From the IMG/VR virus record IMGVR_UViG_3300032309_002445, positions 1-34,761 of that record: 34,761 nt of DNA; one strand, 5' to 3'. This document shows, one piece after another, positions 1-22,320 of this stretch. The notes under the pieces are model-generated. The model was not told where the DNA came from, did no database searches, and saw only the letters and a program-made list of their open reading frames with translations. This DNA is from a virus. The translations under genes were made by a program, and so were the position numbers. Each line of letters starts with the position of its first letter. Within the stretch, counting starts at the first letter, position 1.

Positions 1-2523
1 ATCGTTTGCACCACGAGGATTCGCAAGTAAATTCCAGTTTTCGCGCTGTTTTTCTCTTAGTTCAACAAGTCTTGCTTCTATTTGTTGTTTGGTGCGTAAG
101 TTTCCATTCGCACCTATTCTTTCCAAGAATTGTCCCTGAATTGCTAACAGCCTATTTTGTACATCACCGTACTGTTGTGGGTTCTGTGCGTACCTTTCAA
201 CTTCTGCGAGTAGCGCGTAGTTGAAATCTCTTACAGCAGCCTGTCGTCCATCATTTTCATTAAATGAGTAAGCATCTACATGTAAGCCAAATTGTGCCCT
301 TTGTTCAGGGGTCAAAATTTCGGTGAGCATGCGCTCTACCAATGCTTCGTTTTCAGGTGTAAATTTTGCTACATCCGCTACTTGTGGTTCAAATTTGAGT
401 GCTTTAGGTGCATCTGGTGTTTTTGGTTTAGCAGGAACATCAGGTTTTGCATCAGGCACGACTTCAGGCTTGTCCGCAGAAGGTGGTTTGTTATGTTTTA
501 CAACATCACCCCATGCTTCAATGACTGATTCAATTTCTTCCTTCAGTTCGCGTACATTCATTTCCCTATCGGCACCACGCACAACATCAAGAGGACTTAT
601 ATCGCCCCTGTCTTGTGCTTGTTGAATGCGTTCAAGACGAGCATTAAGCCCAAGGATATTTGTTTCCGCGATACGCAAAGCAGTTCGTTTTTTTGCTTCA
701 GCATCACGGTCATTAGCGCCAGTAAAGTTTTTTGGGTCATTCAAAATCTCTAAGCGTTTACCCAAAACATCTCTGTTTATACGCTCAACGAAAGTATCGT
801 CTCGCAGTGCGTCATTAAGGTTGATTGCGCGTTTTTTAACCACTTTGGGTTTGGGAGTTTTTGGAGTTTTTGACTTTCCTTCAGCAATGTCTATTGCTTC
901 TTGGAATTTCTTGTTTTCAAGTTCCCTGCGACGTCTATCTTGCGCATTGATAGCAATTCGATTAAGTGCACTTATCCTAATTTCTCCCGCGCCATTTTGT
1001 CTTAATATATTAATGTTGTTCTCAATAAACTGGTTCGCTGCTCTTATTTCCGAATTGTTTATGGCTATGCGTTCACGCAAATCGTCGGGGTCACCAAATT
1101 CATCGTCAAGAATTCGTCTTTCAAAGTTTTGTAGGACATCCTCAATTGCATCATCCTCATTTCTCCACTGAACCCTAAATGCTCTTTCTTCATCTATTGA
1201 AAGTCTTCTCACATCTTGAGGCAAGAATGCATCAAGGAAAGCGTCAGGATTGCCACCCTCAAGAGCACGCTCCCTATCAGCATCAGCCAAAATAGCGTCA
1301 GCCTGACGAGCCGCTTCTGCCCGTACTTCTACTGAACGAGCCGCGTTATCGCTATTTCCCGGACCTGCAATATCATCAAATTCAACTTGCCTAAGGGGAA
1401 GATTGTTCTCACCGAAGGCTCTTATGATGTCTGCGGCAATACGGTTTGCATCACCCTCGCCTCTTGCGATTCTTTCATTTACTAAATTGCCGCGTGCGTT
1501 TCGTCTGTTGTCCTCAGAGTAGTAGCGCCCGAATCGTCTCTCTAATTCATTTTTGTCTTCACCCGCATAGTCTGGATTTCTCCAATATGCATCGTTAGGT
1601 AAGCCTCGTCGACGAAAACGATTTCTAACATTTCTTTCTGAGCGTTCATCTGGCTCGCTCTCTATGACATCCTTTGGTTTAGGTCGGCGTGGTTTAACAA
1701 CTTTTGGCTCAACAATAGGTTTTGGCTTCTTTGCTTCTTCTTGTTGCGGTTTAGGTGGTTTTGCTGTTTCTACAACTGCACGGCGACGACGACGAGCGGG
1801 TGCTTCGCCTGTGCGTGGTGCACCGGGTTCGTTGATTTCCCTATCCATCCGTCGTTGTTCAGAATCACGCAGGTTTCCTTCACCACGCGGTTTGACGGGT
1901 CGTCTTGGACGAGCGGGCGCTTCACCTGTGCGTGGCGCACCCGGCTGTTCAATCTCTCTATCCATGCGTCGTTGCTCAGAGTCACGAAGGTTTGGTGCAC
2001 GCCGTCTGCGTGGAGCACGAGGCGCTTCAGGTGTTGAAACAGCCTCAGGTGCATCAACAGATGGTGGACGAGGCGTAACAGTGCGACGCCTTCCACCGCG
2101 AGGAGCAGGAGACGGAACATCTCCGCCATCTAGTCTTTCTGCTACGCCACGCAAACCTCTTTCAAGACGACCAGCGCCACCACCTTCAGGATTTAAGCGT
2201 TGAAGAATTCTGCGCTCACGGCGAGCAATACGACGACCTCTACGAGCGTCGTCAATGTTTTCCATTCTTTCGCCAATGTCGGCAATTTGGTTTGCGATTC
2301 GGCGTGCTACGCCCCAACCGCATGAACGCCCAAACCTGTCAGTGATTTGTCCACCGTATCGTGTCCCCACTGGACAGCGAAAACCACCGCGACGGTTCGT
2401 TCCCGGAATAGACAGACTCGGATCCCAGATAGCACGAACAGCCTTTACTTCATAAGCCATAGTTGACGTGTTCTGTTCGCTAAGGAAAGATTTTGCTTTG
2501 AAGTCAACAGTATTGTTAAGCAT
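1..2523 (-). CDS. Large Arg/Pro-rich protein with Cys-X17-Cys module, C-terminus outside window
   Basis: The frame is open from an ATG at 2523 to the left window edge, giving 841 residues with no stop, so the C-terminus is missing. Residues 25-86 carry a conserved module with GFRCPVGTRYGGQITD and cysteines C50 and C68 spaced Cys-X17-Cys. This module is almost identical to residues 136-197 of the 965-residue protein two genes upstream. An Arg-rich segment follows (about 87-115), then two tandem copies of a 28-residue unit (178-205 and 217-244), a Lys/Pro/Arg linker, and a long charged, probably helical region rich in Asp, Glu, Asn and Arg. The gene starts 3 bases after the preceding stop, so it belongs to the leftward head-locus operon. 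No enzymatic motif was recognised in the visible part. It is probably a virion-associated or capsid-interior protein, by position and shared module only. Confidence 0.8.
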   Translation of the reverse strand, partial: MLNNTVDFKAKSFLSEQNTSTMAYEVKAVRAIWDPSLSIPGTNRRGGFRCPVGTRYGGQITDRFGRSCGWGVARRIANQIADIGERMENIDDARRGRRIARRERRILQRLNPEGGGAGRLERGLRGVAERLDGGDVPSPAPRGGRRRTVTPRPPSVDAPEAVSTPEAPRAPRRRRAPNLRDSEQRRMDREIEQPGAPRTGEAPARPRRPVKPRGEGNLRDSEQRRMDREINEPGAPRTGEAPARRRRRAVVETAKPPKPQQEEAKKPKPIVEPKVVKPRRPKPKDVIESEPDERSERNVRNRFRRRGLPNDAYWRNPDYAGEDKNELERRFGRYYSEDNRRNARGNLVNERIARGEGDANRIAADIIRAFGENNLPLRQVEFDDIAGPGNSDNAARSVEVRAEAARQADAILADADRERALEGGNPDAFLDAFLPQDVRRLSIDEERAFRVQWRNEDDAIEDVLQNFERRILDDEFGDPDDLRERIAINNSEIRAANQFIENNINILRQNGAGEIRISALNRIAINAQDRRRRELENKKFQEAIDIAEGKSKTPKTPKPKVVKKRAINLNDALRDDTFVERINRDVLGKRLEILNDPKNFTGANDRDAEAKKRTALRIAETNILGLNARLERIQQAQDRGDISPLDVVRGADREMNVRELKEEIESVIEAWGDVVKHNKPPSADKPEVVPDAKPDVPAKPKTPDAPKALKFEPQVADVAKFTPENEALVERMLTEILTPEQRAQFGLHVDAYSFNENDGRQAAVRDFNYALLAEVERYAQNPQQYGDVQNRLLAIQGQFLERIGANGNLRTKQQIEARLVELREKQRENWNLLANPRGAND
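1792..1992 (-). repeat. Two tandem copies of a 28-residue coding repeat (39-residue period)
   Basis: Within the partial left-most protein, the unit beginning NLRDSEQRRMDREI and ending PGAPRTGEAPAR occurs at residues 178-205 (bases 1909-1992) and 217-244 (bases 1792-1875). Twenty-six of 28 residues are the same. The units sit in an Arg/Pro-rich linker, so this looks like a duplicated linker segment rather than a folded domain. Confidence 0.8.
2266..2451 (-). repeat. Cys-X17-Cys module, copy 1 (62 residues)
   Basis: Residues 25-86 of the left-most protein, from EVKAVRA through the two cysteines to IADIGER. They match residues 136-197 of the 965-residue protein at 61 of 62 positions (only Ile/Val differs). 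By codon-by-codon comparison, 41 of the 61 matching codons differ silently. The module is therefore conserved as protein, not recently copied as DNA. Confidence 0.9.
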
Positions 2524-2526
2524 TAT

Positions 2527-2838
2527 TTACGCCGTGAAACTTTTCTTATTTGGAAGCGACTTAACTGCTTCGTTGTATAGTTCTTCCGTTACTTGACCGT
2601 CAGAACTGAAACGAGAAGATATTCCTAGAATTTTGCTCAAGATTCTTTCAACTCCGCTTTTGGGGTCAGGGATTTCTTTTCTACCACTAGATGCTGACAA
2701 AATGTCAAAAAGCGCGTTCACTGCGTCCATATCGGAGCCCCTCATTTCAACTACCCCATCAATGTTTTTTACAGCAAAAGAACTATGTTTTTTATCGGTG
2801 TAGAAATCCCTAAATTCCCCTATTGCGAACTCTTTCAT
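2527..2838 (-). CDS. Small hypothetical protein in the head-locus operon
   Basis: 103 residues, no recognised family. It lies 3 bases after the stop of the 965-residue gene and 3 bases before the start of the next gene, so it is clearly an operon member. The N-terminal half (MKEFAIGEFRDFYTDKKH onward) looks like a short mixed alpha/beta unit. The C-terminal half is helical and charged. No cysteines, signal peptide or membrane segment are visible. Its position between two proteins sharing the Cys-X17-Cys module suggests a small accessory or chaperone role, which is a guess from context only. Confidence 0.7.
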   Translation of the reverse strand: MKEFAIGEFRDFYTDKKHSSFAVKNIDGVVEMRGSDMDAVNALFDILSASSGRKEIPDPKSGVERILSKILGISSRFSSDGQVTEELYNEAVKSLPNKKSFTA

Positions 2839-2841
2839 AAT

Positions 2842-5739
2842 TTACCTCTGGTCGACAGGGAGGAATCCGACAACTGTGCTTCGTTTCCTCCGTAGTTTGG
2901 TTAAGTGGTCTTGCATTCCATCATATAATGCTCCTGCTCGCCTAACATTCGCAGGAGTCCTTTCCTGATTTTTCAATGCATCCGCAACGAATTCAGTTTT
3001 CCCAACGCTGAGAACTCTCTCTGTTTTGTTAACAATTTCATCAAATGTTTGTAACATTGCTTCATATGTTTGCTTGCGGATAGCAGCATTACCTATTTGT
3101 TGCAATTCTTGTGATGCCTCACGCATCAAGTTTCGATCCATGAAGAATTCATTTACATAGTCCGAAAAACCACGATTATGAGACCAACCAGCACGAGCGA
3201 GGTCAAGTGGAACGGCTAGTGCTTTCTTTGTTCCATCCGGCGCAGTCACTATTCGACCGATTCCGTTACCTGAATGCCTATCGGACACACCAAGAATAAA
3301 GTTAGACCAAAGGTTAGCCATTCTCATGGGTAGACCCCTGTCCGGTGCTTGTTGTAGTTGTGATTTTACAAAGTCGGTATTTGGGCGCCCTCCATCAGGA
3401 CCTACTTCATGGTCATTGGGAACATCATTGAAAGCCATTGGTGTAACAATAAACTGTGCCCCTGCATTTCGATTCGCACGGGCTCCATATTGTCCAAGGT
3501 CTCGTACGAGTTGAGGCGTTGGCTGAAGCCTGCCATCAGCGATTGCACCATCACCAATGATGCCCACCTCAGCAAGATAGTTCCACCCAACCAATTCCCC
3601 AACGTTGTCTTTATCTTCAGCGGCTTTTAAAACCCAACCTTGGTTGGTCTTTTTCCCATCTTTTCCACGCAAGAAAAATAGTTGAGTAAACCCAATTGCT
3701 CCGCCGCTGGGGGTTATTCTTCTGAACCTAGCATTTAAGTCTGTTTCGTCCGCTGATGCGTTTTGAAACAGAGCCTCAAACATAAATTCCGCCGGAACTT
3801 TCTCAAAATCCCCGCCGTTTTTAACATGGTCAATCGCTTTTTGTTGTGTATCTATTGATTTGTCTTCTTTGTCCACCCATTTGCCAAGACCGCCATTTCC
3901 TCGCTCAATAGGAAGGACTCCATGAGCATTTTCCTTACGAGTGAATGGTCGTAAGGGCGAGCCGTCTGCTTGTTGCATTGGTACCTGTGGTCGTGGTGCT
4001 CTTGGTGGAGCAGGGGGAGCGGGCGGAGTAACGGGAGGCAAGTTTGTCGGACCGACCGCAGGAGGTGGAGTGATTGGCTGAACCACTGCTGGTCTAGCAG
4101 GAGGTGGTTGTGGAGGCTCAGGCAGGGCTCTGATATTTGCACCATTTGCATTAGCCCTGTCTATTTCTGCTTTTTTTACAACATAATGCTTCCCGTTATA
4201 AAGAACTATCTTCAAGTCTTCATCTTGCGCAGCACCTCGTCGCATCTCGTTGCGTTTCCGTAATGCATCTAGCAAACTAACTTGCCCACGCTGACCGGGG
4301 GCGTTGAATGGCTTTCGTGCTGCTCTTACTGGTCGTGCTGGTGCTGGCTCGGGAACATCATCAGGTGTTGGTTTACGGGATGCGCTACGACCCGCATCAA
4401 CTGCTGTAGCGGCGCGACGACGACGACGATTGTTTTGTGGACGCCTTGGTGCTGGTGGTTCAAAGTCTTGCGGTGCACTACGACCGTGAACATCTTTCCA
4501 AGCATCACGCAAGTTATCTTTATTTATCGCGTACCATTCGCGTCGTGTCAACATTCCTGCATTGCCACCACCTTCACGAATTTCACGGACACGCTGTGCA
4601 TACTCGTTGTACTTACGAAGGACATACGGCTGGAATGCTTCAGACTCACCTGCATCAGAAGCCTCTCGTGCTGTTAGTACATCAACATTTTCTGGTTGTG
4701 GGGCGACTCGTGGGCGAGGCTGTGGGCGTCGCTGTCCTTGTGGTGCGGGTTTTGGTGTTGGTTTCGGCTTTGGCTTTGGTTTTGGTGCTGTTTCAGGAAT
4801 AACATCACGGCGTCTATTACGAGGTGGGCGTGCAGATGGTGTTTCTACTTCTTCGTCTCTTGGTGCTTGCCGTCCCCTTCGTCTTGGGACTCTTGGCATA
4901 ATTACTTCATCGCGAACTCTGCGTAATTCTGCTAATGCTTCTTGACGATTTGCTTCACGAACAGGATCTATTTCTCTCTGTGGGCGTGGTGCTCTTGGTG
5001 CATTTCCATCACCGTCAAGTCTTTGAGCAATATCTCTCAAGCCGCCTTCAATACGACCAGTTCGTTGTCCACCCTGTAGACGCGCAATCATTCTTGCGTT
5101 ACGACGGTCAAGACGACGCTTACGCTTGTCGTCATCTCGTTGTTCTAGACGCTCACCAATATCTGCAATTTGGTTAGCAATACGCCGAGCAACACCCCAT
5201 CCGCACGAGCGACCAAACCTATCTGTGATTTGTCCGCCATAACGAGTTCCTACAGGACAACGAAACCCACCACGGCGATTTGTGCCGGGAATGGAAAGGC
5301 TCGGATCCCAAACTGCGCGAACTGCTTTGACTTCAAAGTTTGCTGAAGACCGTGTTTGGTCTGATATGAAAGAAGCCGCCTTGAAAGTTAAAACATTCCT
5401 ATATTCAGCATTAGAGAATTCCGAGAGAAGAACTTCTGAAATTGAAAGAACAGGCAGAGTTACTAATTCCTGAGAATATTGTGGCTCACCATTAAGAAGA
5501 GCAACTTTCTTGGATGTCACTGAACTGTCAGGACTAGGACCTTCAATTATTTTTGAAGAGTCCATTGTCTGCTCTAGTTCGGCTCTTGTTATTTTAGTTT
5601 TAGAGTATTCTTGACGTAAAAATACAGCGATTTCCTTAGCCGATTCTGTCATCGGTTGAAATTTTGTTCCTTCAGGGGTCGTTGAGACCACCATGAAAGG
5701 CGTGTTGTCGCGATTTTTTATAATGAAAACTGATTTCAT
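2842..5739 (-). CDS. 965-aa protein: Cys-X17-Cys module, Pro/Arg-rich linker, kinase-like C-terminal domain
   Basis: Residues 1-115 form a unique N-terminal region. Residues 117-127 (LTFKAASFISD) and 136-197 carry the shared module with C161 and C179. Residues about 205-600 are low-complexity linker rich in Arg, Pro, Ala and Lys, including a KPKPKPKPTPKP run. Residues about 615-965 hold a domain with a kinase-like catalytic layout: VLK with Lys705 as possible ATP-anchoring lysine, a following Glu-rich helix, DRHSGN at 820-825, and Asp846 in PLDLA. DRHxxN followed by Asp is typical of the HipA/PI3-4-kinase/Fam20-like groups of the protein-kinase fold. The domain starts with GGLGKW, also present in the 557-residue protein. 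The ATG start has a GGAAAG ribosome site. It is probably a virion protein with a phosphotransferase-like domain; the substrate is unknown. Confidence 0.75.
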   Translation of the reverse strand: MKSVFIIKNRDNTPFMVVSTTPEGTKFQPMTESAKEIAVFLRQEYSKTKITRAELEQTMDSSKIIEGPSPDSSVTSKKVALLNGEPQYSQELVTLPVLSISEVLLSEFSNAEYRNVLTFKAASFISDQTRSSANFEVKAVRAVWDPSLSIPGTNRRGGFRCPVGTRYGGQITDRFGRSCGWGVARRIANQIADIGERLEQRDDDKRKRRLDRRNARMIARLQGGQRTGRIEGGLRDIAQRLDGDGNAPRAPRPQREIDPVREANRQEALAELRRVRDEVIMPRVPRRRGRQAPRDEEVETPSARPPRNRRRDVIPETAPKPKPKPKPTPKPAPQGQRRPQPRPRVAPQPENVDVLTAREASDAGESEAFQPYVLRKYNEYAQRVREIREGGGNAGMLTRREWYAINKDNLRDAWKDVHGRSAPQDFEPPAPRRPQNNRRRRRAATAVDAGRSASRKPTPDDVPEPAPARPVRAARKPFNAPGQRGQVSLLDALRKRNEMRRGAAQDEDLKIVLYNGKHYVVKKAEIDRANANGANIRALPEPPQPPPARPAVVQPITPPPAVGPTNLPPVTPPAPPAPPRAPRPQVPMQQADGSPLRPFTRKENAHGVLPIERGNGGLGKWVDKEDKSIDTQQKAIDHVKNGGDFEKVPAEFMFEALFQNASADETDLNARFRRITPSGGAIGFTQLFFLRGKDGKKTNQGWVLKAAEDKDNVGELVGWNYLAEVGIIGDGAIADGRLQPTPQLVRDLGQYGARANRNAGAQFIVTPMAFNDVPNDHEVGPDGGRPNTDFVKSQLQQAPDRGLPMRMANLWSNFILGVSDRHSGNGIGRIVTAPDGTKKALAVPLDLARAGWSHNRGFSDYVNEFFMDRNLMREASQELQQIGNAAIRKQTYEAMLQTFDEIVNKTERVLSVGKTEFVADALKNQERTPANVRRAGALYDGMQDHLTKLRRKRSTVVGFLPVDQR
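5149..5334 (-). repeat. Cys-X17-Cys module, copy 2 (62 residues)
   Basis: Residues 136-197 of the 965-residue protein, the counterpart of the module at 2266-2451. One amino-acid difference in 62 residues, against 41 synonymous codon differences. Looser relatives with the same cysteine spacing are at 6590-6646 and 9409-9465. Confidence 0.9.
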
Positions 5740-5834
5740 TGGGTGCTTTCCAAGGAATACGAAGAAGACTTCTGTTCTCCGCCTTTGCCAACGGCGATAT
5801 TGCTATATGAAAATGGTATCACTAATAAGGACAT
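5736..5834 (-). CDS. Possible 32-residue small protein
   Basis: A short frame starts at ATG 5834 (MSLLVIPFSYSNIAVGKG...) and ends at a TGA that overlaps the ATG of the 965-residue gene in an ATGA arrangement. It fills most of the 121-base gap after the 557-residue gene. No convincing ribosome binding site precedes it and no family is recognised. The only support is the ATGA coupling, so it may be chance or a short leader peptide. Confidence 0.2.
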   Translation of the reverse strand: MSLLVIPFSYSNIAVGKGGEQKSSSYSLESTQ

Positions 5835-5860
5835 GGAATTTCAGAGCATTTGTAAATATA

Positions 5861-7534
5861 TTATTTCAAATTCTTCTTGATAAAGGTTTCATAAATCCAG
5901 CGAGGCGCTGTTCTCTCAACACCATCAACACCCGTGTATGTCACCATCTCAAGCGCTTCAGGAATACCACCAAACTGTGTTGAGTACTTAAACGCACCAT
6001 CAGAGTTGGTAGCGAAATCCTCAATGTTTTTTATGATGTTGTCTTTTGTGCTTGATTCAGCAAGAGCGTTAATCATGCGTGGGAATTTTCGCTTCTCGCC
6101 GACGGTGAATGCTCGTGACCGTTCAAGACTGACAACAACACCATTCGGTGCCACGAAAGCAATTTTGCTCATAGATGGTCCACCAAGTAGTGCTAAATCG
6201 TCTGATGTAATGTCTTCAGGCAATTGAATTGCTCGTATCATTGCGCCTTCAACCATGTCAGGGTTTTCGCTGAACGACCGAAGAACGGAAGACGAGACAA
6301 CAGGACGCAGGATTACTCCGTCCCTACGAATCATTCTGCCTTCACCGCGTGGTGCACCTTTCAGGAGCGAGATTGAATCCTTGACAGCAGTATCAAACTT
6401 GCTCTTATTGAAAGCACCCGTTCTAGGGATTTGAGCCATTCGTTGGATTTGGATAGTTCTAGCGTTGCTCGGGTTTCCTTCTAGAACTTCTGAAAGGTTT
6501 TCGGCTCGTGCGTTACCAAGGTTCATTGCTCCACGAACTGCTCGTCCGAGAAGTGCCAAAGGTCCGGGTATTTCAAAGAGTTGAGCACCACAGGTTGAGA
6601 AGCGGTTGTCGGTGAACCTTCCACCATATTCAAATCCAGCAGGGCACCGTGCCTGCCTATTTCGGTTTGGCTTCAGTCGGCTTAAAGCACCACCGCCACC
6701 GCCGGGAACAAGAGCGCCATACACACGAGAACGAATAGGCGATGTAATACTTGAAACATTGCCCGGCGTTATAGCCGAACCAACCGCCTGCAATGCACGA
6801 CCAGCAGGGTTGCTTGACCCAACTAATCCTGCTTTTACTTCAACATCTTCTTCGTCGTTTTTTTCAACACGGTAGCCACCGCCTCGTTTTTTGTATTCAC
6901 GAACAAGCCAAGCATTGGCATACGCAGATGGGTAAACATTAAACTTCTTTTTCGCCTCATTTTTGATACGGGCATAAAGTTCTGGATCCGTAGGAACATT
7001 CTCGCTCTTAAATGTGGTCACATTTATAGGCTTGTTTCCGTCACGAACTTCCGAAGTTTCAGCGCGACGCTTTCTCCGTACGGCAGAATTAATTTCCTCA
7101 GCAGTCATACGCATCGCTATGGATTTCTTTACACACTTGGGGTATTTTCCTGAATCAGCATCTCCCCGTCCGCATGGCTCAAAACCGCCACCCTTTTTTG
7201 GACGAGAGATGTCAACCCATTCTTCATCAAACCATTTTCCAAGACCGCCACGCTTTGTTTCATCACCAACGAAAGTCTCTGCACCAAGGCGAGAAACTCG
7301 TGTTTTTAGATAAAGGGTCGCCTTAAAATTCAAAAGTTCCCTGTTTCCATTAAGTGGGACTTTCCTAATATCGGAGCCACTCTTAAAAATAAAATTCTGT
7401 CTAGATTGTTCAGGATTGAAGTAAATTTCTTGGTCAAGCACGAGATTAGTGCGCTTCATTAGTGTTTTTTCACGCAAAGCAACACGAAAACGCCGAGCAA
7501 AAATATCAAAATTTTGGTTAAATGATTCACTCAT
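5861..7534 (-). CDS. 557-aa head-locus protein with DUF5872-like segment and Cys-X17-Cys motif
   Basis: Residues 67-77 (LLNFKATLYLK) resemble the FKA segment that precedes the cysteine module in neighbouring proteins. Residues 97-220 contain GGLGKWFDEEWVDIS, CGRGDADSGKYPKCV and YPSAYANAWLVREYKKRGG. I recognise these as resembling a small domain (DUF5872-like, recalled from memory) found in phage and giant-virus proteins; its function is unknown. Residues 231-240 contain EVKAG. C297 and C315 form the third Cys-X17-Cys motif (RCPAGFEYGGRFTDNRFSTC), with a Gly/Ala-rich helix following. The C-terminal 230 residues are unassigned and show no DRH kinase signature. The start overlaps the preceding 86-residue gene by 8 bases. 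It is probably a minor capsid or packaged protein, inferred from location. Confidence 0.75.
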   Translation of the reverse strand: MSESFNQNFDIFARRFRVALREKTLMKRTNLVLDQEIYFNPEQSRQNFIFKSGSDIRKVPLNGNRELLNFKATLYLKTRVSRLGAETFVGDETKRGGLGKWFDEEWVDISRPKKGGGFEPCGRGDADSGKYPKCVKKSIAMRMTAEEINSAVRRKRRAETSEVRDGNKPINVTTFKSENVPTDPELYARIKNEAKKKFNVYPSAYANAWLVREYKKRGGGYRVEKNDEEDVEVKAGLVGSSNPAGRALQAVGSAITPGNVSSITSPIRSRVYGALVPGGGGGALSRLKPNRNRQARCPAGFEYGGRFTDNRFSTCGAQLFEIPGPLALLGRAVRGAMNLGNARAENLSEVLEGNPSNARTIQIQRMAQIPRTGAFNKSKFDTAVKDSISLLKGAPRGEGRMIRRDGVILRPVVSSSVLRSFSENPDMVEGAMIRAIQLPEDITSDDLALLGGPSMSKIAFVAPNGVVVSLERSRAFTVGEKRKFPRMINALAESSTKDNIIKNIEDFATNSDGAFKYSTQFGGIPEALEMVTYTGVDGVERTAPRWIYETFIKKNLK

Positions 7535-7787
7535 CTTTTGTTGGTTCTTTCGGTTGTTCTGGTTCAGCGATTTCCGCTGGCAAAGTGGCTTTCCATTTTT
7601 TTGCTAGCACACGTAAAAGTTCAATATTGTCTGTATCTAAAATATTGGTACTAATACTATAATAGGACATTTTAGGGGTGGCGTTTTGAAGGCTATCCCT
7701 CCCTGAAAATGTCACTTCTTGACTCCTTGAGGTGAAGTAAGAGGTTTTGGAAATGCTCGTGCTTGGTGCGACCAATCCGTATCTCAA
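7527..7787 (-). CDS. Small hypothetical protein, 86 aa
   Basis: No recognised family. The N-terminal half is Ser/Thr/Tyr-rich and polar. The C-terminus is an amphipathic helix (IELLRVLAKKWKATL) followed by a Pro/Glu/Lys tail. It overlaps the upstream 102-residue gene by four bases (ATGA) and the downstream 557-residue gene by eight bases, so it is translationally coupled on both sides. That tight packing supports it as a real gene, probably a small structural accessory. Confidence 0.65.
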   Translation of the reverse strand: MRYGLVAPSTSISKTSYFTSRSQEVTFSGRDSLQNATPKMSYYSISTNILDTDNIELLRVLAKKWKATLPAEIAEPEQPKEPTKDE

Positions 7788-8092
7788 AGGTCTTCCCCTT
7801 CGGCTGGTTTCTTTTCCATCTCCACAATTTGCTCATTGGCAAACTTGACGCGAAGCCCATTCAGGACATTTTCTATTTCAGGCGTCACTTCACCAGTCTT
7901 GACATTTTGGTAAGAAAAGCGAGTCAGGAAGTTCTCAAAGGGCAGATTTTTGTTTGCGTCAAAGTATGTGTACCAAGACTTTTGTCTGTCAAATGATTGA
8001 CAAATAACTTCATATTTTTCTTCATTATGGACAAATGCGATGGGTTCAAATTTTGTGTATTCATCGCCAGTGATTAGTGCGTAGGAAGCCAT
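7784..8092 (-). CDS. Small hypothetical protein, 102 aa
   Basis: Starts at an ATG that overlaps the stop of the 528-residue kinase-like gene by one base (TAATG) and ends with ATGA coupling to the 86-residue gene. It appears as a compact alpha/beta protein (YALITGDEYTKFEPIAFVHNEE, then aromatic-rich WYTYFDANKNLPFENFL) with an acidic tail ending AEGEDL. No family, cysteine cluster or membrane segment is recognised. Coupling to the kinase-like gene suggests similar expression levels. Confidence 0.7.
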   Translation of the reverse strand: MASYALITGDEYTKFEPIAFVHNEEKYEVICQSFDRQKSWYTYFDANKNLPFENFLTRFSYQNVKTGEVTPEIENVLNGLRVKFANEQIVEMEKKPAEGEDL

Positions 8093-9678
8093 TAGAAATC
8101 AACCATCGCTTCATATTTATCTACACCATTTCTTTTACCCCATTCAATCAGGGACTCTGGATTTAGCGGTTTTGGCTCTCGGAACCTTGACATCATCGCC
8201 CTCATTAGTTCTTCTGGATTGGCATTTTGTAATATATCTATTCGTTTTATGGCGTCTTGTATTGCGGCTTCGCGCCCTGATTCAAGAGAACCGCCAAGTT
8301 GTCCAAGATGCGTTCGTGCTTCCTTTATCTGAGTAAGCAATTTTTCTCTGTCTATCGCTCGCAATTCTTCCTGAATCTTTTCAATTTCGAGGACTACTTG
8401 CTTACGACCTTCAAGGGTATTGAGTTTTTCGGCTTCCAGTTCTAAACGAACTGCCATAACTCCGCCAACGGGTTTTACCCAATATTTGTACTCTTCGTCA
8501 GCACCCATTCCCGGCGGAAATGCTAGTGACTGGTCAATCGGAATCAAGGCTGAATTTTTTCCTGCTTCGTCCGTAGCAAGAAGCATGTTCGCTTCATGTC
8601 TGTCATTGTTCTGCAAAATAGAGTCAAAAAAAGCCAACCTAACTATCTCTTCACTGTTTATAGATGTTGACTCTCCATCTCCCGATACCGCACCAGAGGA
8701 AATGTCGCCTTCGTACCTATTGTGAGCAAGTTCAGATACCAACGAATGACCTTTATTAATCTTAATACCAGTATCGCCAAGTGTTTCCTCTACCCCATAA
8801 GTGAATCTCATTGGCATGGGTTCGTAGCCAAGATGATTGCCAAAAATTTCTGCGACTATTTCGTTATATGCTTCGTCCCCGTGAAAAGAGCCTTTGCCGT
8901 TCTGGTATTTTATTCCTAACAAAGCACCAGTCTTGGTGTCTCTGAGTCGGGTCATGCCATTGATTCCGCCACCTTCACCTAGTTTCTCAAACCGTTTAGT
9001 CTCACCACCAGTCATACGAACGCCAGTATTTTTGAAGACTTCCTCAATCGCTAACTTTTCAGCAGAATTCGGTATATCTATATTTGCCAAAATCGCTTCA
9101 ATGAGATGCTCGTCTGGTATGTCTGTTAATGCTCCGCCCTCTGCAACATGGGAAACAGAATCTTTTAACTCTAATAAGAATTTACGTTCGCCAGTAATAG
9201 GAGAGAAAACTCCATTACCTTTCGGTACGCGCTTCTGCGCAGTGAAACCTTCCTCATCATGGAAACCAATATCTGGATTTGTTTTCAAGTCCTTGGCTTT
9301 TACGGTCTTGGTTGCTTTTCCGCGTTTAAAACCATCCGATGCACGGTCAGCCAATTTCTCAGACGCATCAACTGCCTGCTGAGCCAATGTCTCCGCGCTA
9401 GGAACCATGCAGTTCGACATTTGCATGTCAGTAAATTGATTGGCATTAGGCGTGCCCGGTGGACAACGAAGTTTCCCTAGTGAGTCAACGATGACACCAG
9501 CGGCACGAGCGGCACGCATTCCAACTGTTTGCAAACCATCATTGTCCTTGATGGTCGGTCCAAGAAAACCCTTAAACAGTAGAACATTTTCTTGAACAAC
9601 CGAAATTGAGTTTAGATACTCGAAAACTCTCTCGTTTGCGTCAAAAGCACGAGACGACCTAATCATCGTCTCCTCCAA
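8092..9678 (-). CDS. 528-aa protein: Cys-X17-Cys motif plus kinase-like (HipA/PI3-4K-like) domain
   Basis: The N-terminus has C72 and C90 in RCPPGTPNANQFTDMQMSNC, the fourth copy of the Cys-X17-Cys motif in this locus. Residues about 228-400 have a kinase-like layout: a Gly-rich stretch (KLGEGGGING), Lys257 in LGIKYQNG, a Glu-bearing helix (EAYNEIVAEIFG), SLVSELA as a hinge-like segment, the catalytic-loop signature DRHEAN at 359-364, and Asp382 in IPIDQS as the metal-binding candidate. All of the expected polar residues are present, so activity is plausible. The last 120 residues are a Lys/Glu-rich predicted coiled coil and a helical tail. Family assignment (HipA, PI3/4-kinase or Fam20-like) rests on the DRHxxN pattern only; the substrate is unknown. 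Its position among head genes suggests a virion-associated enzyme. Confidence 0.75.
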   Translation of the reverse strand: MEETMIRSSRAFDANERVFEYLNSISVVQENVLLFKGFLGPTIKDNDGLQTVGMRAARAAGVIVDSLGKLRCPPGTPNANQFTDMQMSNCMVPSAETLAQQAVDASEKLADRASDGFKRGKATKTVKAKDLKTNPDIGFHDEEGFTAQKRVPKGNGVFSPITGERKFLLELKDSVSHVAEGGALTDIPDEHLIEAILANIDIPNSAEKLAIEEVFKNTGVRMTGGETKRFEKLGEGGGINGMTRLRDTKTGALLGIKYQNGKGSFHGDEAYNEIVAEIFGNHLGYEPMPMRFTYGVEETLGDTGIKINKGHSLVSELAHNRYEGDISSGAVSGDGESTSINSEEIVRLAFFDSILQNNDRHEANMLLATDEAGKNSALIPIDQSLAFPPGMGADEEYKYWVKPVGGVMAVRLELEAEKLNTLEGRKQVVLEIEKIQEELRAIDREKLLTQIKEARTHLGQLGGSLESGREAAIQDAIKRIDILQNANPEELMRAMMSRFREPKPLNPESLIEWGKRNGVDKYEAMVDF

Positions 9679-9951
9679 TTACTCTCTAATTGATTCAGAC
9701 GATTGGTTGATTGTCGAAAGTTGAACCACATCTTCATCGTCTTCATCTTGTTTTTTAGAAGCCTTCTTAGGTTGTGCTTTTTCTTCCGACTTAACTTCAA
9801 CAGGCAAATCTTCCTGTACGACGACCTCTTCAAGAATTTCTTCAACAACCTCTTCAGGAGCAGGTGAAGTTTCAACTACTTGTGTTTCAACCTGCGGTGT
9901 TTGCACCGGAGGCATAAAACCCGAATCAAGGGGCTGACGTTCTTTTTTCAT
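9679..9951 (-). CDS. Small Glu-rich acidic protein, 90 aa
   Basis: Very acidic and low in complexity, with Val/Glu runs (EEVVEEILEEVV) and Pro/Thr spacers. The C-terminus ends in a Lys/Asp stretch and a Ser-rich tail. The start overlaps the upstream stop in TAATG, and the stop is directly followed by the kinase-like gene. No family is recognised. Small acidic helical proteins in this position can be scaffolding proteins, and this one lies after the protease gene where scaffolds are often found. That role is inference from composition and place. Confidence 0.65.
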   Translation of the reverse strand: MKKERQPLDSGFMPPVQTPQVETQVVETSPAPEEVVEEILEEVVVQEDLPVEVKSEEKAQPKKASKKQDEDDEDVVQLSTINQSSESIRE

Positions 9952-11468
9952 TAAACTTCGCCAAAGCCTGTTTCAATCTGAAGCATTTCAAGTTCCATCA
10001 AGTTACTAAGGAACTGCTTTGCTTCGTCATCAACAAGAACTTTTTCTTCCGAAGACCAAGATTCTGGAATCATGTCTTCGCGGTCAAGTTCTTTTGCACG
10101 CTTCATGATGTGCATTTTTGCTTTTGCTTTATCTGATGCACGACCATAAGCCATGATGGCGTTCTTCAAGTCTTCTTCATCTTTGATTGGGAAAGAACCA
10201 TCGCTGAGAGCCATTCCGCCCTTAGCCATTTCCATACGCTCTTCTTCGCTATACATTGCCTTGAGTGCAATATCAGCAATCTCTTCATCAATGTCCGATG
10301 CTTCGTCAGCGTCATATTCGTCGTATCCAAGGATTTCGCCATCTACACCAACATAGACATCGTATGACTTGCCATCAATGCCTTCAATTTCAACAGCGTA
10401 TGCGTCGTATCCGTCAAACATGTCTGCATCAACGGAGACAACATCTCCCTCAATTGACTTTGTTGCAATAGCAGATGCTTCGCTGAAAGAAATAACTTTC
10501 TGACCCGGGATTGTTGCTACTTCACCGATTAAGTCCTCGTTAAGGAGGTGCCAACCCATGCATTCTCCACTTGTTCCATCAAAGTAAGCCTCAACTGGCT
10601 TTCCATCTTTGCGTTGAACATCAACAACAAAAATGTCAACTTCGTCTGCGTAACCAGAGTCCAAAACTTTTCCTGCGAACATGGTTTCAGCCATGCCCTC
10701 AACTTCAAGAAGGCTTGGCATTGTGTCTTGCTGTTCACATCCACCTGGGCATGATGCACAGATTTGCGAACCACCTGCATAGACTTTCCGCTCAATTGCG
10801 CAAACGAAAGCAAGGTCATCGTAGTCTGCTGACTTTACGCCCATGGTCTCCATGCGCTTGGCGCGAGCCTTCTTGCGTTGCTCCATCATTTTCTCGATTT
10901 CGCCGTACATCTTTTCTTCTTCGTCGTCCAAGTCGTCCGGCATATCGTCGTCTTCGTCGTCTTCGCCGTACATTTTTTCGTCTTCAAGAAAAGCCATCAT
11001 GCGCTTTTTCTTTTTCATCAGTGCATCCATGGACATTTCACCGTCACCATGCATACCTTTTTCTTCTTCGTCGTACATCTTTTCTTGCTCCATGAAATCC
11101 ATCATGCGCTTTTTCTTTGCCTCATCCATTGGCATATCGTCTTCGCCGTACATCTTTTCTTCGTCAAGGACAGCCATCATTGGCTTTTTCTTTTTCTTTG
11201 ACGGAGCCATTGGCACAGCCATGCCACTGTTCATCATTTTTTCTTCAGATGCAGTCACCCACTCGCTCTTTTCTCCACGAACGGGAGTAGATGCTTCTGG
11301 TGCCATATCGGCGGGAACGGCTTGTTCTGTCTGTGTGACAGCCTTTGCTCCGCACTTGCCGCAAACTTTCGCACCGGGCTTGTAGCCACAATCCTTCAAC
11401 TCTAAACCTTTGGCGCATTCGATTCCGCCGTCAGCAAGAAGTTTTACTATTGGTGTCTTATTTTCCAT
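9951..11468 (-). CDS. Acidic head-locus protein with KMY repeats, PepSY-like units and DUF6582-like C-terminus
   Basis: I chose ATG 11468 because AAGGAG (11478-11483) lies at ideal spacing, giving 505 residues. The frame stays open to a GTG at 11651, and that 61-residue extension contains a CSVCSNPSRC cluster, so a longer form is possible. In the long-form numbering, residues 157-250 hold four Lys-rich/acidic repeats built around EKMYxE. Then come four cysteines (C284, C298, C301, C305) and two PepSY-like units (about 318-378 and 386-447). A segment at 478-532 (ALSDGSFPIK ... NAIMAYGRA ... HIMKRAKEL ... MIPESW) resembles DUF6582, often seen in actinophage capsid and protease proteins (recalled knowledge). 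It lies directly after the protease gene, a usual scaffold or capsid position, but I see no HK97 capsid fold signature. Function unknown; likely structural or scaffolding. Confidence 0.7.
   Translation of the reverse strand: MENKTPIVKLLADGGIECAKGLELKDCGYKPGAKVCGKCGAKAVTQTEQAVPADMAPEASTPVRGEKSEWVTASEEKMMNSGMAVPMAPSKKKKKPMMAVLDEEKMYGEDDMPMDEAKKKRMMDFMEQEKMYDEEEKGMHGDGEMSMDALMKKKKRMMAFLEDEKMYGEDDEDDDMPDDLDDEEEKMYGEIEKMMEQRKKARAKRMETMGVKSADYDDLAFVCAIERKVYAGGSQICASCPGGCEQQDTMPSLLEVEGMAETMFAGKVLDSGYADEVDIFVVDVQRKDGKPVEAYFDGTSGECMGWHLLNEDLIGEVATIPGQKVISFSEASAIATKSIEGDVVSVDADMFDGYDAYAVEIEGIDGKSYDVYVGVDGEILGYDEYDADEASDIDEEIADIALKAMYSEEERMEMAKGGMALSDGSFPIKDEEDLKNAIMAYGRASDKAKAKMHIMKRAKELDREDMIPESWSSEEKVLVDDEAKQFLSNLMELEMLQIETGFGEV
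10902..11183 (-). repeat. Degenerate KMY coding repeats (four units)
   Basis: Units of the form basic run, MMxxxxxEKMYxE, acidic run recur four times in the acidic PepSY/DUF6582-like protein (EEKMYGEDD, QEKMYDEEE, DEKMYGEDD, EEKMYGEIE). They alternate positive and negative charge, as in a helical or coiled-coil scaffold. DNA copies are imperfect. Confidence 0.75.
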
Positions 11469-11640
11469 GTCTGTGGACTCCTTGTAGTGCATCGTTTTTG
11501 CAATGCACCTTGATGGATTAGAGCAAACAGAGCATGGTGTCAGACGTTTTTCGCCAGACATCACACACTGATACTTTGCTGTTTTTTGTGGTAAACCTGT
11601 TATTGAAGTATAACTCATAATAGTGTTTTGTTTTTGTTTC

Positions 11641-11669
11641 AAATGCAACACAGATTCTGTGAAGCATTT
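11641..11669. other. 29-bp imperfect palindrome in the gap after the protease gene
   Basis: The arms AAATGC..CACAGA and TCTGTG..GCATTT are symmetrical around base 11655, with one 2x2 A/A mismatch. On the plus strand the hairpin is followed at once by TTTTTTATTT, the orientation of an intrinsic terminator for plus-strand (antisense) transcripts. On the minus strand it would be a leader hairpin upstream of the 505-residue gene. It overlaps the GTG of the possible longer form of that gene. Confidence 0.45.
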
Positions 11670-11676
11670 TTTTTAT

Positions 11677-13782
11677 TTACAGAACATCCATCACATTAAC
11701 GAGAGCGTCAAAGGCGTCATCTTCAAGGTCGGTCAAATCAACCTTGACTCCGTCTTCGGTAACTTCTGATTTGATTTGGTAGTAATCCAAAACTGGATCA
11801 AGAAGGTCTTTCAATTCGTAAAGTGAACGCTTGTCTGAGGAGATGGTCATAGTCTCATCCTCGGTGTAACCAAATGATTTTGCTTGCATGTCGGTTGCAA
11901 TACCACCAGCACTAAGGACTTCCTGCAAAAGATTGAAAGCATTTTGCAGTTTGAGCATGTTTCGTGAATTGATAACACGACCAGCCTTGACCTCAATGTC
12001 TTCGTCAGCATCTTTGCCCATCAACTCTGAAATCGCAGCCATTAACATGCCAATCATCTGCTTTGGATTTTTATCTCCGCCACCACAACCGCAGTCATCA
12101 TCGTCGTCAGAACCTTTGTAGTAAGGCATTTCCATGACTCCGCCATTGTCGTCATCGCCTTCCATGACCCAGTTGTCTTTGTCAGCCATGTAGTTAATGA
12201 AGTCAGGCTCAGCATTCATGAATTGCTTCAAAGCCTCATATGCCTTTTCGTCTGCTTCATCATCATTTTCAAACTCAACATCTTCCATCTTCATAGTCTC
12301 TTCTGTCTCGTCTGATTCAGCCAAGCGACTAGCCATAGCCTCCATCATTTCGTAGCCCTTTTCTTCCGATTCAAGGAAGTCAAAGACGGACTTGATTTCG
12401 TCTTCGGTCATGGTTTCAAGCGACTTGCCGGGTTTTAGGACTCCACGAAGACGGTTATTGAATTCGTTGTCATCCCAATTCCGTTTGCGTAGTTTTCCAC
12501 GGCAGTTCTTCATGCCGGGGTGATGGCAACCTTCGTTCGGCCAGAGACCAGTGGTTTCGTGATGCAACCATGCGCAGATGTTGTTCAACGGGTAAAGTTC
12601 AGGGTGGTTGGCAAGAATTACGCGACAACGGCGGAATCCGCCGGGTTTACGCATAATTGGACGCCAGTAACGAAGGAGTTGTTCAAGGTTCCCACGGCGA
12701 GGTCCGTATCCACGGGTTCGCGCAGTGACGATTTCTTGCGGAATGATTCCACCAAGAGGGTCTGCTTTTTCTGGTGATTTTGGCTTAACACCCATGGGGA
12801 CTTGTGGGTCAGCGTCAAGGCGGTAACGGTCTTCGTAGCGTCGCTCAGCGTCTGAACCGCTAGGAACATTGTCTGAATCTGCGTTGACATAAACGGTTTG
12901 TGGCTTTACTCGTGTTGCGTCACCAAACATGAATTGATTGTTATCAAAATGGTAGGAAACACGCATCGTCATGATGCCTTGACCCTCTACACGGTGGTCA
13001 AAAATCACGCTATTTGCGTCTGATTCCCTTATTTTAACGGCTCCACCAAACTTCTTGGCGAGTGCGTATGGCAGGTTCTCCTGACGACTACGCGATGGCA
13101 TTGGCGCATCTACGGCGTCATCATCGTATTCATCGTCTCGTTCTTCTTGTGGCTTATTGCGTTGCATGTTGCTTGCCATGAAGCGTGCGAGAAGTGAACG
13201 ACCCGCTTCGGTGATGTTGCCGTTTTCGTCACGCATCTGACCTTTTGAGTCGTTGCCTTCAAAGGACTTAATTGAGATTGTGCCCGTAAGTTGGTTTGCG
13301 CCGTGAAGAACAGGACTTGCCTCATATAGTTCAACTTTTTTGAGGACATTTGCTTGGCGTTGTGGGTCAAAATCTGCATCAAGGGTTTTGTAGCCAATTG
13401 ACCACTCTTGCTCTTCGCCAAAGAAGGCAACATCTGCGAAAGCCTGACGTCCTCGCTCGGATTTAAGGTTAAATTGAACTTTTGCGTAAAGTCCACCAAT
13501 GCCAGCGGCACGCATTTTGATTGGAAGTCGTGGGTCAGACGGTGGAACTTCGTACATTTCAAGTACTTTTCCGATTGGTTCATTCCAGTTGTGACCCCAA
13601 ACGACGCGAGGTTTACGCCTTTTAAGGCTCTCGGTGAATGCGCCCGGCACGATGATGTCGCCAACGCTGTCCTTGTTCCCAATGCCTGCAACGAAGCATT
13701 CAACGACACCAAGCGCTTCGTCAATATTGAATTGACCTTGGAGTGCTTTGTATTGCTGAGAATCTACTGCGGTGTTTGGCAT
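11677..13782 (-). CDS. Prohead protease (S78-like) with long C-terminal structural extension
   Basis: The first 170 residues match the HK97-type prohead protease (peptidase S78) pattern: GDIIVPGAF (41-49), His64 in VVWGHNWNEPIG, Ser128 in EWSIGY, and Glu154 in LYEASPVLHGA, in the usual order. It would cleave scaffold and capsid delta domains during head maturation. At 701 residues it is much longer than the roughly 200 residues usual for the family. The extension contains an unassigned domain (about 235-300), a Cys/His cluster (C386, C403, C419, C427 with HH at 407-408 and 420-421), acidic helices, a DDDDDCGCGGG stretch, and EVKAGRV at 597-603. The extension may act as scaffold. The ATG has a GGAG ribosome site nearby and the gene follows the portal gene after a 93-base gap. 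Confidence 0.85.
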   Translation of the reverse strand: MPNTAVDSQQYKALQGQFNIDEALGVVECFVAGIGNKDSVGDIIVPGAFTESLKRRKPRVVWGHNWNEPIGKVLEMYEVPPSDPRLPIKMRAAGIGGLYAKVQFNLKSERGRQAFADVAFFGEEQEWSIGYKTLDADFDPQRQANVLKKVELYEASPVLHGANQLTGTISIKSFEGNDSKGQMRDENGNITEAGRSLLARFMASNMQRNKPQEERDDEYDDDAVDAPMPSRSRQENLPYALAKKFGGAVKIRESDANSVIFDHRVEGQGIMTMRVSYHFDNNQFMFGDATRVKPQTVYVNADSDNVPSGSDAERRYEDRYRLDADPQVPMGVKPKSPEKADPLGGIIPQEIVTARTRGYGPRRGNLEQLLRYWRPIMRKPGGFRRCRVILANHPELYPLNNICAWLHHETTGLWPNEGCHHPGMKNCRGKLRKRNWDDNEFNNRLRGVLKPGKSLETMTEDEIKSVFDFLESEEKGYEMMEAMASRLAESDETEETMKMEDVEFENDDEADEKAYEALKQFMNAEPDFINYMADKDNWVMEGDDDNGGVMEMPYYKGSDDDDDCGCGGGDKNPKQMIGMLMAAISELMGKDADEDIEVKAGRVINSRNMLKLQNAFNLLQEVLSAGGIATDMQAKSFGYTEDETMTISSDKRSLYELKDLLDPVLDYYQIKSEVTEDGVKVDLTDLEDDAFDALVNVMDVL

Positions 13783-21906: not shown

Positions 21907-22320
21907 ATGCCACGACCAAGAACGACTGAAGATGTTGAATTCCGCACAGATGTGGATAGTGCTGGCGATGTTGTTCGACGTGCTCGTTTTGTCCGTCGTC
22001 CTCGCCGAGTAGGTGGTCGTAATGTTCCCGGAAATGCTCGTTATTATCGTCGTCGTCAGGCTGAACTCAATGCCGCTAGACGGCAACGCCGTGGCGCTGT
22101 AGCAGGAGCGGGTAACGCAGCCCGTCGTGGACGAGCCGCCGAGCGAACAGCAAGAGGTGCAGGTCGTGCGGGTCGTAATGCAGGCAATCCTCGTACGGTA
22201 ACCCCTCGTGGTACTGGTGGAAATGCTCGTCGTCGTGGTGGTGTTCGTGGCGCTCTTGCCCGTGCCGCAAGAGGAATTGCTGACAGGCTCGAAAGACGCC
22301 GAACTCGTCGTAGCCGATAA
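21907..22320 (+). CDS. Arg-rich, Lys-free basic protein (protamine-like), 137 aa
   Basis: By my count there are 41 arginines (30%), no lysine and about 10 acidic residues. It is built of RRG, ARR and GRAG blocks with Gly, Ala and Asn spacers. The start has AGGAG 8 bases upstream, and the next gene follows after 13 bases with its own GGAGG. Arginines are mostly CGT or CGC. The composition is protamine- or histone-tail-like, suggesting nucleic acid binding, perhaps DNA packing within the capsid. Placement between the DNA cassette and the first connector gene supports a virion-related role. It could instead be an intrinsically disordered structural linker. No family is recognised. Confidence 0.75.
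   Translation: MPRPRTTEDVEFRTDVDSAGDVVRRARFVRRPRRVGGRNVPGNARYYRRRQAELNAARRQRRGAVAGAGNAARRGRAAERTARGAGRAGRNAGNPRTVTPRGTGGNARRRGGVRGALARAARGIADRLERRRTRRSR

What the first reader, a model, noticed from the sequence alone, without database searches (positions are those of the whole stretch)
2320..9465. Cys-X17-Cys motif shared by four consecutive large head-locus proteins
Proteins at 1-2523, 2842-5739, 5861-7534 and 8092-9678 each contain one RCPxG...FTD/ITD...C motif with exactly 17 residues between cysteines (C50/C68, C161/C179, C297/C315, C72/C90). In at least three a similar FKA segment precedes it. The remaining domains differ: two kinase-like, one DUF5872-like, one of unknown type. This suggests a tag that docks different cargo domains to a common site in the virion. 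No described system known to me matches it.
Basis: partly seen in the sequence, partly recalled or inferred. Interest (0 to 1): 0.88.

Follow-up and report, generated by a model that had tools for sequence, protein, structure and literature searches.

The report
Shared cysteine tag on phage head cargo
Four neighbouring genes in a contractile-tailed phage, and in roughly sixty related uncultured phages, attach the same tiny two-cysteine module to very different enzymes probably packed inside the virus head, suggesting an unrecognised way for phages to load a mixed protein cargo for injection into bacteria.

Summary
All four proteins carry RCPxG...(F/I)TD...C with exactly 17 residues between the cysteines. 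Profiles of the three classes match each other (hhalign E 7e-7 to 9e-8). The module recurs in about 60 IMG/VR phage contigs (one class much more widely), with spacing 17 in every instance scored. It is absent from Pfam, PHROGs, 50,697 phage records and GTDB genomes, as far as these tools reach.

The genes lie between the portal-MuF/S78 protease genes and, in relatives, the major capsid gene. C-terminal cargo varies: PI3/PI4-, HipA- or CotH-like kinases, DUF5872, an uncharacterised domain. The module is far better conserved than the cargo, and other cysteines are almost gone (57 of 63 class C proteins hold only the motif pair).

Best reading: propeptide, protease site, retained two-cysteine docking module, polymorphic effector packaged for injection. 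Packaging, cleavage, disulfide and docking are inferred, not shown. New variant of a known kind (T4 Alt/IPs, SPN3US E proteins, polyvalent proteins).

The parts
2320..2376 (-). C-X17-C module of protein 1 (CPVGTRYGGQITDRFGRSC, C50-C68), class C
   Evidence: same 65-aa block as protein 2
2494..2502 (-). FKA (F8-K9-A10) of protein 1, predicted prohead-protease site
   Evidence: [FYHMNVL][KR][ASTG] in 40 of 45 distinct class C N-termini by a fixed window; the five misses have a different distance to the tag, and those seen carry NFKA, YKA, YRA or FKS just outside the window
1..2523 (-). protein 1 (841 aa, truncated by window end): short propeptide, class C module, Arg/Pro-rich linker, C-terminal cargo seen only in relatives (~225-aa domain without library match; GNAT-like by eye)
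2527..2838 (-). 103-aa protein next to protein 1; small ~100-aa ORFs often precede cargo genes that lack an N-terminal domain (possible stand-alone propeptide or chaperone)
2842..5739 (-). protein 2 (965 aa): N-terminal alpha/beta domain, class C module, long Arg/Pro linker, C-terminal kinase-like domain (GVSDRHSGNG ... VPLDLARA)
   Evidence: sequence; kinase hits in homologues; N-terminal model
5494..5739 (-). N-terminal alpha/beta domain of protein 2 (residues 1-82), predicted part of the propeptide
   Evidence: AlphaFold2 pLDDT mostly 80-85, no PDB match
5377..5385 (-). FKA (F119-K120-A121) of protein 2, predicted protease site
   Evidence: K120 and A121 at least 90% conserved over 32 sequences
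5203..5259 (-). C-X17-C module of protein 2 (C161-C179), class C
   Evidence: both Cys invariant in 32 sequences
5861..7534 (-). protein 3 (557 aa): N-terminal part, NFKA site, DUF5872 insert, class B module and conserved C-terminal domain
6863..7249 (-). DUF5872 / phrog_23735 segment (residues 96-224)
   Evidence: Pfam PF19197 7e-15; phrog_23735 3.9e-16
7319..7327 (-). FKA (F70-K71-A72) of protein 3, predicted protease site
   Evidence: NFKA/EYKA/NYKA-like in most class B N-termini, also in the wider group as SFKA/EFKA/EYKA
6590..6646 (-). C-X17-C module of protein 3 (CPAGFEYGGRFTDNRFSTC, C297-C315), class B
7784..8092 (-). 102-aa protein next to the kinase gene, of the small-ORF type
8092..9678 (-). 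protein 4 (528 aa): propeptide, class A module, PI3/PI4-, HipA- or CotH-like kinase domain (DRHEAN and second Asp motifs present)
   Evidence: PF00454 3.5e-4, below cut-off; phrog_3162 6e-8; Foldseek to PI4KIIalpha 3e-5 and CotH kinase 1.5e-4
9568..9576 (-). FKG (F35-K36-G37) of protein 4, predicted protease site
   Evidence: KG[FY][LM]G in 21 of 21 class A proteins; low-pLDDT loop
9409..9465 (-). C-X17-C module of protein 4 (CPPGTPNANQFTDMQMSNC, C72-C90), class A
9951..11651 (-). 566-aa Cys-rich acidic protein with CxxC cluster and PepSY domain; candidate scaffold or protease inhibitor
   Evidence: PF03413 2.6e-5; Cys 2.5% over 18 orthologues
11677..13782 (-). S78 (HK97-type) prohead protease with long C-terminal extension
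   Evidence: PF04586 8.4e-12; phrog_80 5.5e-30
13744..13752 (-). YKA (Y11-K12-A13) of the protease, predicted self-cleavage site
   Evidence: [YF]K[AS] in all 13 displayed orthologues with intact N-termini; also cultured GMA6 (NLNYKA) and Cantare (NLQYKG)
13876..16086 (-). portal-MuF fusion protein
   Evidence: PF04860 3e-48, PF04233 2.2e-7, phrog_2662 2.6e-94

Best explanation
The four proteins are head-internal cargo proteins of a contractile-tailed phage related to actinobacterial myophages. Each is built as: an N-terminal propeptide that targets it into the prohead core (short, or carrying a ~80-aa alpha/beta domain); a site [FY]K|[ASG] cut by the S78 prohead protease; a small two-cysteine module that stays on the mature protein; and a variable C-terminal effector domain (kinase, DUF5872-associated domain, others). 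The module is the common handle: it folds as a small element closed by, or joined through, its two cysteines and holds the different effectors in or to a common place in the head until they are ejected with the DNA to act on host targets. Shown: module homology, invariant spacing, strong conservation against variable cargo, near-total loss of other cysteines, position in the head locus, recurrence of the K|small site in the protease and near the scaffold/shell junction of the capsid protein. Inferred: packaging, cleavage, cysteine pairing, docking, injection.
For: Module homology and invariant spacing. Tag 67-97% identical against cargo 31-46% among P2 orthologues; duplicated tag with pS 0.88 and pN 0.05. 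Non-motif Cys 0.0086% in 70,115 aa of class C against 0.38% in connector/tail and 0.58% in all + strand proteins of the window; 57/63 class C, 18/21 class A and 14/20 class B proteins have exactly the two motif Cys. Locus: portal-MuF, S78 protease, module genes and, in relatives, MCP. K|small: FKA/FKG/NFKA in the cargo, [YF]K[AS] at the protease start, KSLGE and EFK[AST]L in the MCP; the HK97 record gives KS at residues 103-104 followed by LGS, and HK97 MCP has a 103-residue N-terminal scaffold (PMC10275583). Cargo: kinase hits and PI4K/CotH-like fold. The next gene in relatives has a DUF3721 N-terminus and variable C-termini, in one phage an Arr-like ADP-ribosyltransferase. Cultured Gordonia relatives put a VIP2-like ART and a large protein with a shared N-terminal tag after the portal gene. 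Precedents: SPN3US N-terminal propeptides of 20-254 residues (PMC10052503); T4 Alt and phage polyvalent proteins (PMC5512222).
Against: No virion proteomics for this group. AlphaFold2 gives the module pLDDT of only 56-73 in protein 2 and 36-57 in protein 4, so no fold or Cys-Cys distance is established. In the model FKA of protein 2 lies in a helix (110-139), not an open loop. K|small tripeptides are only mildly enriched by raw count (head 24 against 16.4 expected; other genes 28 against 22); the case rests on position and conservation. In some wider relatives the capsid K of KSIGE is E or Q, so EFK|S may be the capsid site instead. Some class B proteins have four Cys. Other genes of the locus (protease, 566-aa protein, DUF3721 genes) are Cys-rich.
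Confidence: 0.5

Rival explanations
1. The two cysteines work between molecules: two modules share a zinc site (zinc-hook style, C4 from two chains) or form intermolecular disulfides, stapling the different cargo proteins into one core particle that comes apart in the reducing host cytoplasm.
For: Exactly two Cys, no conserved His or third ligand in the core; near-total purge of other Cys, as expected where stray disulfides would harm; three or four modules in one phage genome.
Against: No structural evidence; P, G and TD conservation fits an intramolecular mini-fold equally well; class B of the wider group keeps extra Cys.
Confidence: 0.2
2. The module is an assembly (scaffold-core) element that binds portal-MuF, the 566-aa protein or DNA during prohead assembly and has no role after maturation; the cargo needs no docking in the mature head.
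For: It sits just after the predicted propeptide; class C modules are followed by an Arg-rich stretch (median 21.7% Arg, net +10 per 100 aa) that could bind DNA or an acidic scaffold.
Against: It lies downstream of the predicted cleavage site and no conserved K|small site was noticed after it, so it should stay on the mature protein; classes A and B lack the strong Arg stretch.
Confidence: 0.2
3. The proteins are late-expressed but not in the virion (host-takeover enzymes encoded in the head operon), and FKA/VKA is simply part of the fold.
For: No proteomics; AlphaFold places FKA in a helix in protein 2.
Against: Syntenic position between protease and MCP genes in relatives; the same [FY]K[AS] feature starts the protease; Cys depletion resembles the MCP (0.038%) rather than the window's other proteins.
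Confidence: 0.15
4. The shared motif is only a relic of gene duplication and recombination, without a function in common.
For: P1 and P2 clearly duplicated the block; cargo genes are mosaic.
Against: Synonymous saturation with pN 0.05; invariant letters across three classes and roughly sixty or more contigs; constant spacing.
Confidence: 0.03

Closest known systems
T4 Alt and internal proteins (capsid targeting sequence, prohead protease gp21)
   Same: Cargo loaded into the prohead by an N-terminal propeptide, cut by the prohead protease, injected with DNA; Alt is an enzyme acting on host proteins (PMC5512222; propeptide part from general knowledge and PMC10052503).
   Different: T4 uses another protease and cleavage motif and, to my knowledge, no retained two-cysteine module; here the cargo sits in an HK97-type (S78) head locus.
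phiKZ/SPN3US ejection (E) proteins
   Same: Several head proteins with long N-terminal propeptides removed by one protease; paralogous cargo (gp53/gp54) (PMC10052503).
   Different: Other phage lineage; listed sites end in E (for example ASE-20, E-124) rather than K; no shared Cys module known to me.
Polyvalent proteins of phages (Iyer et al. 2017)
   Same: Large multi-domain proteins in phage head contexts, predicted to be packaged and injected, with kinases, ARTs and acetyltransferases (PMC5512222).
   Different: Polyvalent proteins join several catalytic domains in one chain; here consecutive separate genes carry one common small tag, mostly with one recognised effector domain each. The word 'cysteine' does not occur in that paper.
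MuF polymorphic toxins
   Same: Phage head protein N-terminus with variable toxic C-terminus (PMC5576092, listing and abstract only).
   Different: MuF here sits in the portal fusion; the four cargo proteins have no MuF domain, and immunity genes were not systematically sought.
Gordonia/Mycobacterium head-locus tag VRDxDYWGxPxGTPIxxGM (seen here)
   Same: Short tag shared by consecutive proteins encoded just after the portal gene, including a VIP2-like ART, and inside a MuF fusion protein.
   Different: No cysteines in the tag; profile comparison does not support homology (hhalign probability about 5% or less).

Membership tests
Head-packaged, protease-processed injected effector (T4 Alt / SPN3US E-protein kind) | Encoded in the head assembly locus with a prohead protease | tested here: met
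   Portal-MuF, S78 protease, cargo genes, MCP order in relatives
Head-packaged, protease-processed injected effector (T4 Alt / SPN3US E-protein kind) | N-terminal propeptide ending at the protease's site | tested here: inconclusive
   Conserved [FY]K[ASG] in cargo and protease and K|S in MCP like HK97; no cleavage data; capsid site ambiguous
Head-packaged, protease-processed injected effector (T4 Alt / SPN3US E-protein kind) | Present in the virion and delivered to the host | not testable with these tools
   Needs virion mass spectrometry and delivery assays
Polyvalent proteins | Two or more disparate catalytic domains in one polypeptide | tested here: not met
   At most one recognised effector domain per window protein; proteins up to 2,454 aa in relatives are not fully annotated
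MuF polymorphic toxins | MuF domain at the N-terminus of the toxin protein | tested here: not met
   PF04233 only in the portal fusion 13876-16086, not in the four cargo proteins
PI3/PI4-, HipA-like kinase (protein 4) | Fold and catalytic motifs (DRHxxN, second Asp) | tested here: met
   DRHEAN and ID motifs in sequence; Foldseek to PI4KIIalpha, PI3K, CotH kinase at E about 2e-5 to 4e-4; Pfam score below the curated cut-off, so the exact kinase family is open
Known Cys-module family (Pfam/PHROGs) | Any profile covering the C-X17-C module | tested here: not met
   No hit over the module in the four window proteins; no recurrent family fitting it among 81 homologues
GNAT acetyltransferase (cargo of protein 1 relatives) | Profile match | tested here: not met
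   No hit in Pfam, PHROGs or PDB sequences above noise; resemblance is by eye only

The most novel reading that the evidence does not exclude
A redox-keyed cargo system: one small two-cysteine module, left on the protein when the prohead protease removes the propeptide, staples a whole set of unrelated effectors into the phage head through disulfides (or shared zinc) that form in the virion and open in the reducing host cytoplasm, which is why nearly every other cysteine has been purged from proteins up to more than 2,000 residues long.
Probability: 0.15. Interest if true: 0.85.

Novelty: new variant of a known kind. Interest (0 to 1): 0.64.

Why it matters
It would give a sequence handle for predicting which phage proteins of unknown function are packed in the head and injected, in a group of large uncultured myophages. 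The combination of one conserved mini-module, many unrelated effectors, a predicted HK97-type processing site and near-complete loss of other cysteines makes specific, cheap predictions about how mixed protein cargo is loaded and released. It also suggests that HK97-type proteases can process a multi-protein cargo, as the proteases of T4 and phiKZ-type phages do.

Tried and rejected
Chance: rejected by spacing statistics, profile matches and conservation. Single Zn-knuckle: only two Cys and no conserved His in the core, so a monomeric zinc site is unlikely. The C79-X17-C97 in the 566-aa protein (9951-11651) is a different four-Cys cluster (CAKG..CGYK..CGKC) and not a fifth member. Homology to the Gordonia VRDxDYWGxPxGTPI tag: hhalign probability about 5% or less, so analogy only. 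Gilgamesh gp48 (4,624 aa, no Cys) begins with LEVKAARRKWNP...GRF near its N-terminus, suggestive of the class C start but not testable at this length. The module was not found in cultured phage records (tblastn) or GTDB genome contigs. A PDB fold search of the module gave nothing. Protein 1 cargo as GNAT: not supported by any library. Host not determined; the portal's nearest cultured relatives include Streptomyces, Gordonia and Brevibacterium phages. Clustering the cargo by BLAST single linkage merged nearly everything and was not informative.

Full report
OBSERVATION. The four minus-strand ORFs 1-2523, 2842-5739, 5861-7534 and 8092-9678 each hold one RCPxG...[FI]TD....C with 17 residues between the cysteines, at the stated positions. 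Random placement of the actual cysteines gives this step with probabilities 0.0024, 0.0021, 0.021 and 0.0035. P1 and P2 share the block by duplication, so three cases are independent. Profiles of the three classes align with each other at E 9e-8 to 7e-7.

FAMILY. The window is a 34,761-base IMG/VR record. Scans of viral contigs with the kinase protein and with the P2 block returned 40 and 58 loci, many from the same contigs and some over 100 kb. Profile-guided scans returned 92 and 251 confirmed stretches for classes C and B. In synteny the usual order is portal-MuF, S78 protease, a Cys-rich ~500-aa protein, class A (kinase in the window), small ORF, class B, one to three class C genes often next to a ~100-aa ORF, a DUF3721-type gene, then the major capsid protein. 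About 118 distinct instances from the first scans and all 63 further hits scored have spacing 17 (the first set was partly found by that spacing, but a profile search of the same loci turned up no instance with another spacing). The wider group carries class B, and in some phages a class A-like protein of about 1,450-1,480 aa, without class C in the stretches seen. The module is in no Pfam or PHROGs profile found, is not found by tblastn in 50,697 phage records and not in GTDB genome contigs.

SELECTION AND CYSTEINES. Between P2 orthologues the tag is 67-97% identical while the region after it is 31-46%. The duplicated 65-codon block in the window has pS 0.88 and pN 0.05. Class C proteins contain 6 non-motif cysteines in 70,115 residues (0.0086%), against 0.38% in connector/tail proteins and 0.58% in all plus-strand proteins of the window; the capsid protein family is 0.038%. 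Exactly two Cys are found in 57/63 class C, 18/21 class A and 14/20 class B representatives. In the wider class B group many proteins have four, so the purge is strongest where class C occurs. That nearly every other cysteine is lost while these two never change is the most telling sequence fact; it suggests that the thiols pair, or bind metal, in a setting where stray thiols are harmful (inference).

CARGO. Protein 4 has a PI3/PI4-kinase-like or HipA-like domain: PF00454 at 3.5e-4 (below cut-off), phrog_3162 at 6e-8, and an AlphaFold2 model whose PDB matches are PI4KIIalpha, PI3K, MAP kinases and CotH kinase at E about 2e-5 to 4e-4. Protein 2 has GVSDRHSGNG...VPLD, the same kind of signature (sequence). 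Eight of 40 class C and nine of 41 class A+B homologues match PF00454, and 37 of 63 class C representatives have a DRHxxN pattern. Protein 3 has DUF5872 (7e-15). Protein 1 is cut by the window; its orthologues end in a conserved ~225-aa domain that looked GNAT-like to me but matched no profile or PDB sequence, so I leave it unassigned. The next gene in relatives has a DUF3721 N-terminus with variable C-termini, one an Arr-like ADP-ribosyltransferase (6.2e-6). Cultured relatives by portal place an RNA ligase, a VIP2-like ART and large unknown proteins after the portal gene.

PROCESSING. The capsid protein has an N-terminal ~100 aa followed by xKSLGE...EFK[AST]L. The HK97 gp5 record has K103-S104 followed by LGS, and a paper on HK97 gives a 103-residue N-terminal scaffold domain followed by a 281-residue shell domain (PMC10275583). 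I therefore infer that [FY]K|[ASG] is the site of the S78 protease and that the four proteins lose N-terminal propeptides, as SPN3US head proteins do (20-254 residues, PMC10052503). Limits: raw tripeptide counts are only mildly enriched, the AlphaFold model puts FKA of protein 2 in a helix, and in some wider relatives the first capsid K is E or Q.

MECHANISM. Most likely: the propeptide targets the protein into the prohead core; the protease frees it; the retained module, closed by its cysteines or paired with another module, holds the effector in a common place; the effectors leave with the DNA and act on host targets. My own estimates: packaging 0.75; cleavage at FK|small 0.6; cysteine pairing 0.5; the module as docking site 0.4. 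The module's own fold is unknown: pLDDT 56-73 and no PDB match.

COMPARISON. It works like T4 Alt and internal proteins and SPN3US ejection proteins, and its cargo resembles that of polyvalent proteins (PMC5512222). It is not filed as a polyvalent protein (several catalytic domains in one chain not met in the window) nor as a MuF toxin (MuF domain absent from the cargo). An analogous tag, VRDxDYWGxPxGTPIxxGM, links a VIP2-like ART and its neighbour in Gordonia phages and occurs inside a mycobacteriophage MuF fusion, but profile comparison does not support homology. I call the find a new variant of a known kind.

Noticed in passing
L103:22697-36571 (Streptomyces phage Gilgamesh gp48): A 4,624-aa protein without a single cysteine lies between portal-MuF and the gp52 'hydrolase' (similar to the Cantare head maturation protease by BLAST); near its start it reads LEVKAARRKWNP, like the class C start.
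   Followed up: partly
L107:14061-18106; L104:8862-13003; L110 gp8; L111:5962-6930: Cultured Gordonia phages share the tag VRDxDYWGxPxGTPIxxGM between a VIP2-like ART and its neighbour; the same tag sits in a Mycobacterium protease/MuF fusion and a Stormageddon ART.
   Followed up: partly
9951-11651: Cys-rich acidic protein with a PepSY domain and repeated EKMYGEDD-like units next to the protease: possible scaffold or protease inhibitor.
   Followed up: no
L054:15836-17128 and orthologues: The gene before MCP has a DUF3721 N-terminus (GCxGAHxxxxxWMPC) with highly variable C-terminal cargo, one an Arr-like ADP-ribosyltransferase; a second polymorphic tag family.
   Followed up: partly
2527-2838 and 7784-8092: Small ~100-aa ORFs alternate with the cargo genes in many relatives; possible stand-alone propeptides or chaperones.
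   Followed up: partly
21907-22320: 137-aa Arg-rich protein (protamine-like composition) between the early + strand genes and the connector/tail genes.
   Followed up: no
20152-21285: Phosphoadenosine phosphosulfate reductase-like gene (phrog_2302, 2e-76) among the head/tail genes.
   Followed up: no
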